Shown here in pieces: positions 1,314-7,886 of a DNA stretch of 64,000 nucleotides (position 1 is its first letter; each line of letters begins with the position of its first letter). The position numbers and the translations under genes were made by a program. Origin of the DNA: Nostoc sp. FACHB-280 (GTDB lineage Bacteria > Cyanobacteriota > Cyanobacteriia > Cyanobacteriales > Nostocaceae); NCBI RefSeq assembly GCF_014697615.1, contig NZ_JACJSD010000011.1, positions 1-64,000 on the forward strand, given 5' to 3'. The notes below the pieces were generated by a model. That model saw only the letters and a program-made list of their open reading frames with translations, made no database searches and was not told the DNA's origin.

Positions 1314-2717
1314 CTACAGCAAGTCACGCACGTCAGCAACTTCGCCCTTAATAGCCGCAGTCGCCACCATCGCCGGACTCATCAGTAATGTGCGACCAGA
1401 GGCGGAACCTTGTCTGCCTTTAAAGTTGCGGTTAGAAGAAGAAGCACTGATTTGTCTACCTTGGAGTTTGTCGGGGTTCATCGCCAGACACATGGAACAT
1501 CCTGGTTCTCGCCATTCAAAACCTGCGGCTGCAAAGATTTTGTCTAATCCTTCGGCTTCGGCGGCTTGTTTCACTCTTTCGGAACCGGGGACAACAAAGG
1601 CTTTGACTCCTTCAGCCACGCGACGACCTTGGGCAATTTTCGCCGCTTCTCGCAAATCGCTGAGTCTACCGTTGGTGCAGCTACCAATAAAGCAGACATC
1701 GATTTTTGTGCCTTTGATTGCTTGACCGGGTAATAAATCCATGTAGCGATAAGCTTCTTCGGCAATAAAACGGTCTTCTTCCGCCAGTTCTTCGGGTTTG
1801 GGGATGAATTGATTAATGCCGATTCCTTGACCGGGGGTGATTCCCCAAGTAACTGTTGGTGAAATCTCGGCGGCATCGAAGACAACGACATCATCGTATT
1901 CGGCATCAGCATCACTCTTGATGGATTCCCACCAAGTTACTGCTTGATCCCAGTCTGCGCCTTTGGGGGCAAAGTCTCTATCTTGGAGATAATCGTAGGT
2001 GACTTGATCGGGATTGACGTAACCGCATCTCGCCCCACCTTCTATTGCCATGTTACAGACGGTCATCCGTTCTTCCATGTTCATGGCTGCAAAGGTAGTG
2101 CCGGCAAATTCATAGGCGTAACCAACACCACCTTTCACGCCCAAGGTACGGATAATATGCAGAATTACATCTTTGGCGTAGACACCGGGGTTGAGAGTGC
2201 CGTTCACTTCTATTTTGCGGACTTTGAGTTTAGCGAGGGCTAGGGTTTGGGAGGCGAGAACATCGCGGACTTGACTTGTCCCAATACCAAAAGCGATCGC
2301 ACCGAATGCACCATGACTTGATGTATGACTATCTCCACAAGCGATCGTCATTCCTGGCTGGGTTAATCCTAATTCTGGGGCGATGACGTGGACTATACCT
2401 TGATTGCCGGAGCCAATATTATAAAAAGTTAAATTATTTTCTTGACAGTTCTGTTCCAGAGCTTGAATCATGGCTTCTGCCACACTGTCAGCAAAAGGAC
2501 GTGCCTGATTATCCGTAGGTACGATGTGATCTACTGTCGCTACAGTGCGCTGGGGAAACAGTACCTTCAGACCTCGTTCGCGCAACATCGCAAAGGCTTG
2601 GGGACTAGTGACTTCATGAATTAGATGCAGGCCGATAAATAGTTGTGTCAGCCCTGAAGGAAGTGTACCAACGGTGTGTAAGTCCCAAACTTTATCAAAC
2701 AGGGTGCCTTTGCTCAT
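1314..2717 (-). CDS. leuC: 3-isopropylmalate dehydratase large subunit
   Basis: The 467-residue protein is a full-length aconitase-superfamily LeuC. It starts [16 protein letters not shown] and has the substrate-site segment [23 protein letters not shown]. The three [4Fe-4S] ligands are recognisable in [15 protein letters not shown] and in the two cysteines of [13 protein letters not shown]. With LeuD it isomerises isopropylmalate in the cytoplasm. It is the first gene of a leuC-leuD pair on the minus strand. No leader peptide or leucine-rich attenuator was evident upstream. Confidence 0.96.
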
Positions 2718-2778
2718 AGGTCAATCGTTATGTAACGAGTCGGAATTTTTATAGTATCAAAAAAGCGTCGGACAATTT

Positions 2779-2806
2779 TAGATTTTGGATTTTGGATTTT
2801 GGATTG
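2779..2806. repeat. Heptanucleotide tandem repeat (ggatttt)
   Basis: About three to four tandem copies of ggatttt lie between leuC and the Nudix gene. Short tandemly repeated heptamers of this kind (STRRs) are typical of heterocystous cyanobacteria. No promoter or structural role is evident. Confidence 0.7.
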
Positions 2807-2864
2807 ATTTCACAGATAAATTCGGAATTTTACCTTGATGGAATCATTGCTTTATCTCTTGCCT

Positions 2865-3320
2865 TTATGCTGAAGTTTGTGTGTTGACAAATGCTAGACA
2901 AGAGTTTGATTGAAATTGGAGAAATTGATGCAAAATCTTTTTGAGGGAATTTTGCTTGACCATTTGAATAGCAAGGTTCACATCTAACCATTCTCGCTGT
3001 CTCAGCCCAGCTTCAGGATAATCTTCACTTAGCATTTCAACTAACAGTAAATACATCTGCACTCGGTAGATTTTGCCGCGTTTGCGATATCTGTAACTAC
3101 CTACGGCATTGACATCTACTTGTCCAATGATACCTGCTTCTTCCCAAGCTTCTTTGGCGGCGGAAGCAGGCGGACTCATACCTTTGGCAATTCCGCCTTT
3201 GGGAATTACCCAATTATTGCGATCGCGGGTTGTTATTAGTAAGATTTCGATGGTGCCATTCTGCACTCTATAAGGAATGACCCCCGACTGCTTGAAGATT
3301 TTCCTGATTTTCTGATTCAT
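2865..3320 (-). CDS. Nudix hydrolase
   Basis: The 151-residue protein has a Nudix domain with the box GGIAKGMSPPASAAKEAWEE followed by AGI, around residues 43-65. Relative to GX5EX7REUXEEXGU the first Glu is Met and the Arg is Lys; the metal-binding EE pair is kept. The GGIAKGMSP form resembles the diphosphoinositol-polyphosphate phosphohydrolase-like branch of the family. Nudix enzymes hydrolyse nucleoside diphosphates linked to another group; the substrate here is unknown. It is a single gene upstream of leuC on the same strand, about 150 nt away, and a shared transcript is not shown. Confidence 0.85.
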   Translation of the reverse strand: MNQKIRKIFKQSGVIPYRVQNGTIEILLITTRDRNNWVIPKGGIAKGMSPPASAAKEAWEEAGIIGQVDVNAVGSYRYRKRGKIYRVQMYLLLVEMLSEDYPEAGLRQREWLDVNLAIQMVKQNSLKKILHQFLQFQSNSCLAFVNTQTSA

Positions 3321-3428
3321 GAACTTTCTGGATGAGCGTCATCATAAAACAAGGCAAGAGGTGATTTCAGCTAAGTCTCATTTTTATACAGCTATTAGGC
3401 ATCTACTATAAGACAGAAAGCTTTGAGA

Positions 3429-3459
3429 AGTAAAAAGTAAAAAGTAAAAAGTAAAAAGT
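3429..3459. repeat. Heptanucleotide tandem repeat (agtaaaa)
   Basis: Four tandem copies of agtaaaa lie in the 217-nt space between the Nudix gene and the TetR gene. This is a typical STRR array of filamentous cyanobacteria. Confidence 0.8.
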
Positions 3460-3537
3460 CAGAAATCGATACATTTAGGCGTTTACAAATATTTTTCTTG
3501 CTTTTAACTTTTAAATTTGAACTTTTGCCTTATTACT

Positions 3538-4755
3538 TCATGCTGGCTTATGATCTAAACGAATTGCTGCTTCTAAGGCTGCTTTTTCTTTGGCGCGGCG
3601 AGCATAAGGTTGCAACTGGGAGCGATCGCAGCCTGTTAAAATACTTAAATCTTCCAAACTCACACCTCGCATTAACATTTCTACACACCATGTTTGTTGT
3701 GCTTGAGTAATTTCTGGTGGTTTACCTTGGGGTGTTAACAAGTCTTGAGTCCAAATCTTCCAACGTTGCAGTAATTCTGACTCAGAAAGAGAATTACCTA
3801 AATTGTCAATAAACATTGCCGGATGATAATCTTTGCGACTTTTTAGCCATTTAATCAAAGGATTGTTGGTATGAGAACCGTAGTGTTTACCTAAAATCCA
3901 TTGGTTCACAGGCACTTGGCGGGGTAAAGTTGGGGTAGTGATTTGCAGAATTAGTCCTTGAGTATCGGAAATTTGGTGCGATCGCTGCAAGCTGATTATC
4001 TCTGAAACAGATAAACCAGCACCAAATAACAGGTATGCTAAAGCATAATCTTCTATTCCCGATTTTCTGGAGTTTTGCAGAATTTTATGGACTAAAATCC
4101 CAGGCAAATCAGCTACTTCTTTGATAATTACAGCTTCTTTGGTTAATTGGGGAGCAGTAGACATTGCTCCATGTAAAAACAACTCCACTAAATTCTCTAA
4201 AAAATCATCTCTATCTTCCCATAGTTCATGAAATTCACTTGTAAATTCAATCACCGCATATCCCAAGATCATACCGTTGAGTAAACTGGCTAATTTTTCT
4301 GCCGGTAGATAGGTATTTAGGTCTCCCTGTTGGATGACAGTAGCTAAATACTGCGCTACATAGCGGTTAGCTTCTGTTAATCCTCTCCCCAACGCACGGC
4401 GATTTTCAGCAGGAAATTGGTCTGCTTCACCCACTACCGACCGCACAAACTCTGGGACTCGTTCTAATGTATGTAAGCTATCACTTGCATAATCTTTCAG
4501 GGCTTGATAAACGTTACCTGGAGGAGTAGCCCTCTGGACTAAAGATTCTCCCAAATCCTTAAATGCTGCTGATTCTTCTAATACTGCTAACAGGAGACCA
4601 TGTTTATTGCCAAAATGGCGAAATAGAGTCACTTCATTGACTCCAGCTTTTTCAGCAATTTGGCGAGTAGTAGTATTACTAACTCCTTGTGTAGTAAATA
4701 ATTCTAGTGCTGCTTGGATCAGACGCTGACGGGCTGAGATTGATTGAGATGCCAT
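3538..4755 (-). CDS. TetR-family regulator with a C-terminal tyrosine-recombinase-like domain
   Basis: The 405-residue protein (start at ATG 4755, whose product begins MASQSISARQR) has an N-terminal TetR helix-turn-helix (about residues 8-55; TTRQIAEKAGVNEVTLFRHF) and a TetR ligand-binding-like region to about residue 200. TetR proteins are normally about 190-220 residues, so roughly 195 residues are extra. That extension reads like the catalytic domain of a tyrosine recombinase: YALAYLLFGAGLSVSEIISL (about 237-256), a VPVNQWI-like strand, and MLMRGVSLEDLSILTGC...QPYARR (about 360-387). The Arg of GLRxSE is Ser249 and the HxxR/H motif is lost, while a Tyr remains at about 384, so it is probably catalytically dead. 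It diverges from the desaturase gene, with two matching palindromes in between. Confidence 0.8.
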   Translation of the reverse strand: MASQSISARQRLIQAALELFTTQGVSNTTTRQIAEKAGVNEVTLFRHFGNKHGLLLAVLEESAAFKDLGESLVQRATPPGNVYQALKDYASDSLHTLERVPEFVRSVVGEADQFPAENRRALGRGLTEANRYVAQYLATVIQQGDLNTYLPAEKLASLLNGMILGYAVIEFTSEFHELWEDRDDFLENLVELFLHGAMSTAPQLTKEAVIIKEVADLPGILVHKILQNSRKSGIEDYALAYLLFGAGLSVSEIISLQRSHQISDTQGLILQITTPTLPRQVPVNQWILGKHYGSHTNNPLIKWLKSRKDYHPAMFIDNLGNSLSESELLQRWKIWTQDLLTPQGKPPEITQAQQTWCVEMLMRGVSLEDLSILTGCDRSQLQPYARRAKEKAALEAAIRLDHKPA

Positions 4756-4763
4756 AAGAAATA

Positions 4764-4782
4764 ATGCAAGTGGCACTTGCAT
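4764..4782. promoter_or_regulatory. Palindromic operator 1 of the TetR/desaturase intergenic region
   Basis: The sequence atgcaagtggcacttgcat is a perfect inverted repeat with 9-bp arms around one central base. It sits 9 bp upstream of the TetR start codon, the typical place for an autoregulated TetR operator. A closely related 19-mer lies at 4811-4829. Confidence 0.65.
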
Positions 4783-4810
4783 AAAAAACCAATAGTTGTT
4801 ACGATGCCTA

Positions 4811-4829
4811 ATGTAAGTGATACTTGCTT
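4811..4829. promoter_or_regulatory. Palindromic operator 2 of the TetR/desaturase intergenic region
   Basis: The sequence atgtaagtgatacttgctt matches operator 1 at 15 of 19 positions and keeps most of the dyad symmetry. The centres of the two sites are 47 bp apart. It lies on the desaturase side of the divergent intergenic region and is therefore a candidate site for control of that gene. Confidence 0.55.
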
Positions 4830-4924
4830 AAGTTCACTGTAACGAACTAGTTTACAGAATGGGGAAATTTCTTGGGGAAGTTTACCCAGATCCCAGCAAA
4901 TCACTTCATGATCCATCAACGGAA

Positions 4925-5788
4925 ATGTTTATGACTGCAAAATATCTGGCGGTTGCTTCTGAGACAGGAAAATCACCTCGCCTTAGATGGGTGAATGTGG
5001 CTTTTTTTGCAACTATTCACGCCTTAGCTCTGTTGGCTCCTTGGTTTTTTTCTTGGTCGGCGCTAGGATTGCTAGTGTTTCTCCATTGGTTATTTGGTAG
5101 TATTGGCATCTGCTTAGGATATCATCGACTATTAAGCCATCGGAGTTTCCAAGTACCCAAGTGGTTAGAATATGCGATCGCCATTATCGGAGCCTTAGCA
5201 CTTCAAGGTGGGCCGATTTTTTGGATTGGTGGACACCGCCAGCACCATGCCCATACAGAAGATATTAACTTAGATCCCTACTCTGCCCAACGGGGGTTTT
5301 GGTGGAGTCACATACTATGGATTTTGTATCCCCGCCCAGAGTTTTTTGACTATGAAACTTATAAAAAATATGCCCCAGATTTAGAAAGACAACCTTTCTA
5401 TCGTTGGCTAGATCGCTACTTCTTATTGTTGCAAATTCCCTTCGGATTATTGTTATATGCTCTAGGCGGCTGGTCTTTCGTAATCTACGGAATGTTTGTG
5501 CGAGCAGTATTATTGTGGCACTCCACTTGGTTTGTTAATTCTGCATCACATTTGTGGGGTTATCGCACCTTTGACGCGAATGATGGCGCACGTAACTTGT
5601 GGTGGGTATCACTTCTAACTTACGGTGAAGGCTGGCACAACAACCATCATACCTTTCCCCATGTTGCCAAATCTGGATTTCAGTGGTGGGAAATTGACAT
5701 TACTTGGTGGAGTATTAAAGCTTTAAAAAGTTTGGGTTTAGCCAAAAAAGTCATCTTACCGCCACCGCAAATTGCAAATCAAAGATAA
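4925..5788 (+). CDS. Acyl-lipid / acyl-CoA Delta9-type fatty acid desaturase
   Basis: This integral membrane diiron desaturase has the three histidine boxes in order: HRLLSH (in LGYHRLLSHRSF), HRQHH (in GGHRQHHAHTED) and HNNHH (in GEGWHNNHHTFPH). Hydrophobic segments lie before the first box and between the second and third. It should insert a cis double bond into a fatty acyl chain in membrane lipid; the box pattern fits the DesC Delta9 class. The frame is open from 4859, but the first 22 codons look unlike a desaturase N terminus, so ATG 4925 or ATG 4931 is preferred. It is divergent from the TetR-type regulator, and the two operators suggest that regulator adjusts membrane unsaturation. 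Confidence 0.85.
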   Translation: MFMTAKYLAVASETGKSPRLRWVNVAFFATIHALALLAPWFFSWSALGLLVFLHWLFGSIGICLGYHRLLSHRSFQVPKWLEYAIAIIGALALQGGPIFWIGGHRQHHAHTEDINLDPYSAQRGFWWSHILWILYPRPEFFDYETYKKYAPDLERQPFYRWLDRYFLLLQIPFGLLLYALGGWSFVIYGMFVRAVLLWHSTWFVNSASHLWGYRTFDANDGARNLWWVSLLTYGEGWHNNHHTFPHVAKSGFQWWEIDITWWSIKALKSLGLAKKVILPPPQIANQR

Positions 5789-6035
5789 ATTAACTCTAAG
5801 AATTCAGCACTCAGGAGTCGGAAATCAGAATTTAGAAAAAATTAAACATGATTCCTAAATTGATTTGTCACAATTGTTCTGATTTTGATCAATATTCTGA
5901 CTCCTAAAGCCTTAAATCATGTCCGGCAAATCAGTTACGAGTCTAAGAATCTGTGCAGAAATATCAAATCCTCGTCCTCTGCACCTCTGCTATCTTAATG
6001 AGAAGTCTTTTACCGGACAAAATATCACACCTAAA

Positions 6036-6434
6036 TTATGGCAACTTATAGCTGGCAACCCGGACATTTAATTGTCCTTGACTGGGATTTTTGCTGAATA
6101 TAAATGCACCTTCTTCCTTCTCACCATCAGATAAAAAATCTATTTGTTGTTCTCCTGTTTCGATGACTTGATCAGCGATTTTTAACTCAGCAATAATCTG
6201 TACTGATTCCGCAGTTTCACCACCAGCATTAACTATTTCAAAGGGAACATAAAATTTCCCCTCAATTTCTTTAATTGCTGATTTTTGATTTACCGACAAA
6301 ATAGGAGGCTGATTTTTTTCATTCAGCCACATATAACCAACTAAGCTAATCACAACTGCCAGAATAGATAAAGCTATTCCAAATGTGATCCATTCAGCTA
6401 AAGAGCGTTCCGGTTGTGGTTCTGTTTCCATCAT
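6036..6434 (-). CDS. TIGR02588-like single-pass membrane protein
   Basis: The 132-residue protein has one N-terminal transmembrane helix (about residues 15-36, EWITFGIALSILAVVISLVGYMW) followed by a predicted extracytoplasmic beta-rich domain (YVPFEIVNAGGETAESVQIIAEL...), which resembles an Ig-like or CARDB-like fold. It overlaps the upstream gene by 4 nt (ATGA type). I recognise the pair by arrangement as the TIGR02588/TIGR02587 conserved neighbours; their function is not known to me. Confidence 0.65.
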   Translation of the reverse strand: MMETEPQPERSLAEWITFGIALSILAVVISLVGYMWLNEKNQPPILSVNQKSAIKEIEGKFYVPFEIVNAGGETAESVQIIAELKIADQVIETGEQQIDFLSDGEKEEGAFIFSKNPSQGQLNVRVASYKLP

Positions 6435-7288
6435 ATTGCTAACCTACCCGCCGCGCCGCCAATAGTCGCAGGTAATCCCAAAACTAAAGTATGTTCTAGC
6501 CACATCATCCAAGGGTCTGATAAAGTGAGCTTTTGAAAGAAAAATAGCATTGCTCCACTAGCCAGCAAAGATACTAAATAAGATATTGTAGTTTCGCTTA
6601 GTGGACGCTGAAAAATTCCTTTTTGCTGTCTACGTTTTTTTTGGTCGGAAAAACCAGCTTGAAAGACAATAGCGTAGGAAATTACTAAAGACGCAGCTAT
6701 TAATACCCATAACCAAGGCGGAGAAATAGCCGCCGCTAACATAGGAACTTCATCTGTTGGTGCAATATTAAAAGCAATTACAGTTGCACCAATCACAGTT
6801 GCGCCTAAGTCAGCTAATGTGGCGTGTAAATTATTTTTATGAGTGGCTGGAGTTGAATTATTTTGATTACCTTCTTGGAGAAATTGGTTAGCTAAAGCTA
6901 CACCAAGGGTAAATGGTACGCCTTCATATACCACTTTTCCCAATGATTCTTTTAAGGAAGTTGCTGGGGTAATTTCTTGCAATAACCACAACATAAATGC
7001 AGCACAAACAAACCCAATCGCCATTGCTTCTACAGTGTCTATTGCAGCTTCATCTAGTCGCCAAGTATTTCGGCGTTTCCGAAATCCCTCTGTATAGTTG
7101 AGTAAAAAAACTACAATAAACATTAAGGCGATCGCTATTGCAATTAATCTTGGTTTTGCTAATGAGCCAATCCACCATACTTCCATTGTATATATTAGTG
7201 GAATGCCAAATAAAAAACCTCCACAAATTCCCCGGACAATATCATTTATTTCCTGCTTCCAGGAATTTTTGTACTGCTTTTTTCTCAC
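6431..7288 (-). CDS. TIGR02587-like polytopic membrane protein
   Basis: The 285-residue protein has about seven or eight hydrophobic segments (IVRGICGGFLFGIPLIYTMEVWW, LIAIAIALMFIVVFLLNY, AIGFVCAAFMLWLL, and others) with charged connecting loops such as FSDQKKRRQQ. The start is a GTG at 7288. Its 3' end overlaps the following TIGR02588-like gene by 4 nt, so the two are translationally coupled and likely act as one membrane complex. The segment GGFLFGIPLIYTMEVWWIG is the most family-like part. No enzymatic motif was seen. Confidence 0.7.
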   Translation of the reverse strand: MRKKQYKNSWKQEINDIVRGICGGFLFGIPLIYTMEVWWIGSLAKPRLIAIAIALMFIVVFLLNYTEGFRKRRNTWRLDEAAIDTVEAMAIGFVCAAFMLWLLQEITPATSLKESLGKVVYEGVPFTLGVALANQFLQEGNQNNSTPATHKNNLHATLADLGATVIGATVIAFNIAPTDEVPMLAAAISPPWLWVLIAASLVISYAIVFQAGFSDQKKRRQQKGIFQRPLSETTISYLVSLLASGAMLFFFQKLTLSDPWMMWLEHTLVLGLPATIGGAAGRLAI

Positions 7289-7382
7289 TACTAATAAGTA
7301 CCTAATTATTTGGTTGTCAGATTTATATGTGTTGTCATATTTCTCATAAACTAGAGATTCTCCGCATCTATCTGAGGTTACG

Positions 7383-7886
7383 CTAAATCAATTTCACACC
7401 TTCATGATTGAGTAACCAACGCTTGCGTTCTAAACCTCCTGCATAACCAGTCAGCGCAGCATTCGCACCGACAACTCGATGACAGGGAAGCACAAGTGCA
7501 ATGGGATTAAGTGAATTCGCCATTCCAACAGCGCGATAGGCTGTCGGTTTACCAATTCTCGCGGCTAACTCAGCATAAGCAATAGTTGTACCCCAAGGAA
7601 TTGTTCGCAATGCAAGCCACACTTGCTGCTGAAACACAGTCCCACCAGTGTTGAGGGAAATATTGTTTAAACTGGTGCGATCGCCTGCAAAATAAGCTTG
7701 AATTTTATTACTAATACCTTGGGGATTTTTTATATATTCAAAATTAAAGCTTTCATAACGCTTTTGCAACAAATTCAGCATTCTTGATTCATAATCTGCA
7801 AAGTCCAAAGCGCAGAGTTTTTCACCATCAGTCACAATTAAAATTTGGCCGATTTCTGAATTGATTTTGTCAATGAATAATTTCAT
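7383..7886 (-). CDS. ogt: Methylated-DNA-[protein]-cysteine S-methyltransferase
   Basis: The 167-residue protein repairs O6-alkylguanine by irreversible transfer of the alkyl group to a cysteine. The active site PCHRVVG is present (Cys135), preceded by the DNA-binding helix with the conserved Arg (YRAVGMANSLNP) and followed by LTGYAGGLERKRWLLNHE. The N-terminal third is the less conserved Ada/Ogt-type domain. Length is normal for Ogt. It stands alone; the gene on its upstream side is in the opposite orientation. Confidence 0.92.
   Translation of the reverse strand: MKLFIDKINSEIGQILIVTDGEKLCALDFADYESRMLNLLQKRYESFNFEYIKNPQGISNKIQAYFAGDRTSLNNISLNTGGTVFQQQVWLALRTIPWGTTIAYAELAARIGKPTAYRAVGMANSLNPIALVLPCHRVVGANAALTGYAGGLERKRWLLNHEGVKLI

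What the first reader, a model, noticed from the sequence alone, without database searches (positions are those of the whole stretch)
3538..4755. TetR regulator fused to a degenerate tyrosine-recombinase catalytic domain
A normal TetR N-terminal half is followed by about 195 residues that align by eye with the second half of a tyrosine recombinase: LLFGAGLSVSEIISL for the GLRxSEL helix, MLMRGVSLEDLSILTGC for the LLxxGxxxxxxxLGH region, and a Tyr in QPYARR at the nucleophile position. Ser replaces the first catalytic Arg and the HxLRH motif is absent. An integrase fold re-used as a second DNA-binding or oligomerising module in a repressor would be unusual.
Basis: partly seen in the sequence, partly recalled or inferred. 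Interest (0 to 1): 0.72.

Follow-up and report, generated by a model that had tools for sequence, protein, structure and literature searches.

The report
Repressor carrying a dead integrase domain
A cyanobacterial gene switch sitting next to a fatty-acid desaturase gene consists of a complete TetR-type regulator joined to a recombinase domain that has lost its DNA-cutting residues, and this unusual combination, with its paired DNA sites, recurs widely among cyanobacteria.

The parts
3538..4755 (-). regulator gene, 405 aa plus stop: TetR + degenerate recombinase CAT domain
4159..4737 (-). complete TetR domain pair, residues 7-199 (HTH 12-58 at 4582-4722)
3544..4122 (-). degenerate tyrosine-recombinase catalytic domain, residues 212-404
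3859..3900 (-). family-specific stretch 286-299 (WILGKHYGSHTNNP), highly conserved; holds about nine residues more than aligned recombinases; low confidence in the models
   Evidence: pLDDT
3553..3624 (-). C-terminal helix 378-401, at the place of the recombinase Tyr and terminal helix; K391, A397, L400, D401 conserved
4766..4780 (.). proximal operator-like palindrome GCAAGTGGCACTTGC
4813..4827 (.). distal operator-like palindrome GTAAGTGATACTTGC, centre 47 bp from the proximal one
4796..4801 (+). conserved TTGYTA element, -35-like for the desaturase; 17 bp before GATACT (4819-4824) inside the distal palindrome
   Evidence: 89 of 103 regions at 11-13 nt from the distal core; promoter role inferred
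4859..5788 (+). divergent fatty-acid desaturase gene (FA_desaturase 7.5e-20), the presumed target

Best explanation
A local, autoregulated TetR repressor (or repressor/activator) of a divergently transcribed fatty-acid desaturase. Inferred steps: TetR dimers bind the two TGCAAGTGNCACTTGCA-like palindromes between the genes, the distal one lying where the desaturase -10 region would be, and so close the desaturase promoter and their own; the TetR ligand pocket senses an acyl product or substrate, as in DesT, MadR and FadR. The degenerate CAT domain, derived from an Xer-like recombinase and now without an active site, no longer cuts DNA. It acts as a second DNA-contacting or oligomerising module that couples the two operator-bound dimers across the roughly 30 bp between the operators, TetR having taken the place of the recombinase core-binding domain. 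Supported by computation here: the two folds, loss of catalytic residues, selection on the domain, linkage to the desaturase, paired operator-like sites. Inferred: which domain binds which DNA, repression, the ligand, and the CAT domain's role.
For: Folds. Catalytic loss: of 147 distinct full-length sequences, first Arg is R in 1, second Arg R in 17 (Q in 125), Tyr in 131; at most 4 of 6 catalytic positions kept, in one sequence. Constraint: dN/dS of the CAT part 0.10-0.23 in 12 of 12 comparisons, TetR part 0.01-0.04 (the 12 of 36 relatives with gap-free length). Co-loss: of 23 relatives without the fusion 3 keep a close desaturase (69-71%), in the other 20 the best is 55% or less. Operators: 106 of 119 upstream regions hold AAGTN3ACTT; 102 of 115 distinct regions hold a pair 42-60 bp apart, 69 at exactly 47 bp, 0 of 2300 single-base shuffles. 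The plasmid copy in Gloeothece citriformis PCC 7424 keeps desaturase, regulator and a 47-bp pair. A 15-bp pattern written from the two window sites has no other perfect match in the genome.
Against: No binding, expression or oligomer data. The paired spacing may come from promoter geometry alone. 47 bp is about 4.5 helical turns, so the two dimers would face opposite sides, which does not favour simple side-by-side contact. The CAT part changes several times faster than the TetR part. 13 of 115 distinct upstream regions lack a pair, and 3 of 23 fusion-less genomes keep a close desaturase. The ligand is only by analogy. Upstream regions are related, so the counts are not independent.
Confidence: 0.6

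Rival explanations
1. The CAT domain is a partner-binding or signal-receiving module rather than a DNA-contacting one: another protein (or a ligand in the former active-site cleft) docks on it and lifts or strengthens repression, much as antirepressor Sar pairs with the recombinase-fold repressor SroF, or FtsK gamma with XerD.
For: The most conserved stretches are not catalytic: RQVPVNQWI and the following GKRYGSYTNNP, the latter of low confidence in the models, as a loop that orders on a partner might be. SroF-Sar (9rgl) and XerD-FtsK gamma (5dcf) are among the structural matches, seen by title.
Against: Of five window genes looked for beside the fusion only the desaturase recurs (desaturase 79, nudix 12, leuC 4, leuD 4, DUF2391 gene 3 of 80). 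A partner encoded elsewhere is not excluded. Conserved Lys/Arg also suit DNA.
Confidence: 0.25
2. The CAT domain is a passenger with no function of its own; the TetR part does everything.
For: The TetR part is complete and evolves more slowly; palindromic operators suit a TetR dimer alone.
Against: dN/dS 0.10-0.23 over the CAT part, many residues kept at 90% or more in a weighted count of 147 sequences, and presence in 189 of 388 genomes of the class.
Confidence: 0.08
3. It is still a recombinase that rearranges the promoter region, using the conserved Tyr.
For: Tyr kept in 131 of 147 and a conserved C-terminal helix.
Against: No sequence keeps more than 4 of 6 catalytic positions; the second Arg is Gln in 125 of 147; Tyr itself is lost in 16 of 147. 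The gene pair is divergent in 79 of 80 and 38 of 40 loci.
Confidence: 0.02

Closest known systems
MrpR (YopR), SPbeta prophage master repressor, PDB 8a0a; paper PMC10516654 (abstract and passages seen)
SroF of phage phi3T (PDB 9rgl, 9rd5; titles seen)
   Different: Phage protein with an antirepressor; no TetR in the title; its paper was not read.
TnsF of Tn6022-like transposons (PMC10293859, passages seen)
   Same: Inactivated tyrosine-recombinase domain used to recognise DNA, joined to another DNA-binding domain (zinc fingers).
   Different: Transposon target selector, not a transcription regulator.
DUF3504 genes (ZMYM2/3/4, QRICH1, WOC), domesticated Crypton recombinases (PMC3212892, abstract seen)
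   Same: Degenerate recombinase domain in proteins many of which are transcriptional regulators with further DNA-binding domains; lacks most of the catalytic tetrad.
   Different: Animals; presumably an independent origin.
DesT (Pseudomonas) and MadR (mycobacteria), TetR regulators of desaturases (PMC8872791, passages seen)
   Same: TetR-type regulators of desaturase genes responding to acyl-CoAs.
   Different: No recombinase domain is mentioned in the passages seen; close kinship to them was not tested here.

Membership tests
TetR/AcrR family | N-terminal TetR helix-turn-helix | tested here: met
   PF00440 3.9e-16, residues 12-58
TetR/AcrR family | C-terminal all-helical ligand/dimer domain | tested here: met
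TetR/AcrR family | binding to a palindromic operator near its own gene | tested here: inconclusive
   conserved palindromes present; binding not testable here
active tyrosine recombinase | CAT-domain fold | tested here: met
active tyrosine recombinase | catalytic R, K, HxxR, H/W, Y | tested here: not met
   window protein, read from the alignment: S, T, TxxQ, C, Y; family counts
active tyrosine recombinase | N-terminal core-binding domain | tested here: not met
   residues 7-199 are TetR, the CAT match starts at 212
MrpR-like recombinase-fold repressors | recombinase fold without the catalytic set | tested here: met
MrpR-like recombinase-fold repressors | own core-binding domain | tested here: not met
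   TetR instead
DesT/MadR-type desaturase regulator | TetR protein acting on a desaturase gene | tested here: inconclusive
   linkage and shared intergenic palindromes; no expression data
DesT/MadR-type desaturase regulator | acyl-CoA or acyl-ACP ligand | not testable with these tools
   acyl-CoA-bound FadR chains are among the TetR matches but tied with many others

The most novel reading that the evidence does not exclude
A very old, cyanobacteria-wide domestication: an Xer-like recombinase lost its core-binding domain and active site, was joined to a TetR repressor, and its CAT domains now form a recombinase-like assembly on the roughly 30 bp (about the length of a dif site, recalled as 28 bp) between two TetR operators, so that desaturase control uses the architecture of a recombination synapse without recombination.
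Probability: 0.3. Interest if true: 0.78.

Novelty: new variant of a known kind. Interest (0 to 1): 0.62.

Why it matters
It adds a chromosomal, non-phage case to the few bacterial regulators known to be built on a dead recombinase fold, with a graded record of how the active site was lost (some lineages still carry the second Arg, several of these with an adjacent His as RHT). It also points to a direct regulator of membrane-lipid desaturation in cyanobacteria, with presumed operators short and conserved enough to test at once; in the one annotated record seen the protein bears only the general label TetR/AcrR family.

Tried and rejected
Ordinary TetR with a long C-terminus: rejected by profile and fold. 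Origin from a known phage or virus: the search for related loci on viral contigs gave none (two short patterns), tblastn of the window's domain on phages none at E 0.01. A paralogue of the domain in the same genome: none but itself at E 10. A wider regulon: of 6 one-mismatch sites elsewhere in the genome 5 lie inside open frames of 100 aa or more and 1 lies between genes, about 140 bp before a 291-aa ORF; the backwards control pattern gave 3 hits, so I claim no further targets. The search pattern was written from the two window sites, so their perfect match is by construction; what it shows is the lack of others. Strict vertical descent: quick trees of 40 regulators and 40 desaturases share several groups, but family f1 is split, four regulator end branches are long, and a mobilizable plasmid carries the pair, so lateral spread is not excluded. 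G072 (contig of 4,659,019 bases) has the size I recall for Gloeobacter violaceus; its place in the tree is unsure, so I do not use it to date the fusion. The GATACT -10 reading is weak: only 16 of 41 non-redundant distal cores have it. Presence outside the phylum was not tested; the genome-contig scan gave 249 relatives, of which only the best 80 were named. Literature: 10 searches, of which some were aimed at the fusion and some at analogues; none showed a paper on it. One search was swamped (16,309 papers, 20 listed), and the library lacks most subscription journals. Of the listed papers I opened PMC11448079 and PMC5745447 by passages and found them unrelated. Rows dropped: L097 (short frame) and L121 (contig edge) from alignments; 8 short hits from the catalytic count; A3 used 70 and A4 72 of the 78 full-length named loci. 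In one search one of the three flanks without a fused regulator (L224) is cut by the contig edge.

Full report

Loss of catalysis. Aligned with recombinases of the same genome, 147 distinct full-length sequences (8 short hits dropped) have, at the first catalytic Arg, Ser in 125 and Arg in 1; at the second, Gln in 125 and Arg in 17; at the H/W position Cys in 89 and Trp in 31; at the Tyr position Tyr in 131. Counting six positions, 99 sequences keep one, 37 two, 9 none, one three and one four. The group-f50 sequences printed there keep the second Arg, several with an adjacent His (RHT), like remnants of the HxxRH motif. The domain is nonetheless constrained: dN/dS 0.10-0.23 in 12 of 12 comparisons, the 12 of 36 relatives of gap-free equal length. 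Among its best-conserved stretches are RQVPVNQWI and the following GKRYGSYTNNP; somewhere in 286-299 lie about nine residues that the aligned recombinases lack, and this stretch has low confidence in the models. The C-terminal helix, which recombinases swap between subunits (recalled), also stays conserved, with K391, A397, L400 and D401.

Distribution. Of 60 relatives 37, the window's genome included, have the full-length fusion. In an even sample of the class, 189 of 388 genomes match the domain at E 1e-8 or better; all but nine of the listed rows lie in open frames of 385 aa or more, as a fusion needs (the list was cut). In a sample of the phylum 30 of 292 match, all of the same class or nearer. 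Of the 80 named loci 78 have an open frame of 395 aa or more. Most genomes show one match.

The gene pair. A desaturase (PF00487 7.5e-20) is divergent to the gene in 79 of 80 named loci, the exception being a contig that ends inside the regulator. The window's own downstream genes recur in few loci. Of 23 relatives without the fusion, 20 have only desaturases of 55% identity or less and 3 (G039, G050, G057) keep one at 69-71%; the flanks held for those three showed no fused regulator, one flank being cut by a contig edge. A mobilizable 29-kb plasmid of Gloeothece citriformis PCC 7424 carries the same pair.

The operators. The 103 bp between the genes hold GCAAGTGGCACTTGC (4766-4780) and GTAAGTGATACTTGC (4813-4827), centres 47 bp apart. 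A 15-bp pattern written to cover both (two pyrimidine positions and one free position) has no other perfect match in 7.64 Mb. Of 119 upstream regions, 106 hold AAGTN3ACTT within 400 bp and 83 hold two or more. With one mismatch allowed per pair, 102 of 115 distinct regions hold a pair: 69 at 47 bp, 18 at 46, 5 at 48, the rest between 42 and 60; 13 hold none; 0 of 2300 shuffles (single-base shuffling; the regions are related, so this is not a probability). A third element, TTGYTA-like in the desaturase direction, lies 11-13 nt from the distal core in 89 of 103 regions and 30 of 41 non-redundant ones, against 54 of 8200 shuffles. In the window it stands 17 bp before GATACT inside the distal palindrome, which fits a desaturase promoter blocked by the regulator; this promoter reading is an inference, and GATACT is present in 16 of 41 non-redundant regions only.

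How it probably works. TetR dimers on two operators, autoregulating and repressing the desaturase, with an acyl signal by analogy with DesT and MadR (PMC8872791, passages seen). The CAT domain as DNA-contacting or oligomerising module is my preferred reading, about even odds within this frame: two dimers bring four CAT domains, the helix at the place of the swapped one is conserved, and the DNA between operator edges is about 30 bp. Against it, 47 bp is about 4.5 turns and no binding data exist. A partner-binding role is the main rival.

Noticed in passing
L186, frame from about 3260 (G241:C3, about 2527260-2527655): A 132-aa open frame carrying only the last third of the CAT domain, away from the full-length fusion of the same genome; a fragment or a separate small protein.
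   Followed up: partly
L251 (NC_011730.1, pP742403), 1398-7679: The plasmid copy of the gene pair sits among an orange-carotenoid N-domain protein, an ssl1498-like light-harvesting protein, a pentapeptide and a fasciclin protein; relatives of these are rare at the other loci (OCP-N in 2, ssl1498 in 1, pentapeptide in 4, fasciclin in 0 of 120).
   Followed up: partly
window 3428-3459, 2775-2805, 1217-1240: Short tandem repeats (AAGTAAA x4.6, ATTTTGG x4.4, CTTTGCGC x3.0); the first lies just downstream of the regulator gene.
   Followed up: no
window 4859-5788; G000 C92:117095, C46:66659, C30:4916: The genome has four related desaturases (100, 72, 70 and 50% identical to the window one); the flank read of the C92 copy holds neither the motif nor a fused regulator.
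   Followed up: partly
window 4796-4801: TTGYTA, in some loci with an inverted copy beside it (for example TTGCTAGCATAGCAA in L107 and L111), could be a third protein site rather than a -35 box.
   Followed up: partly
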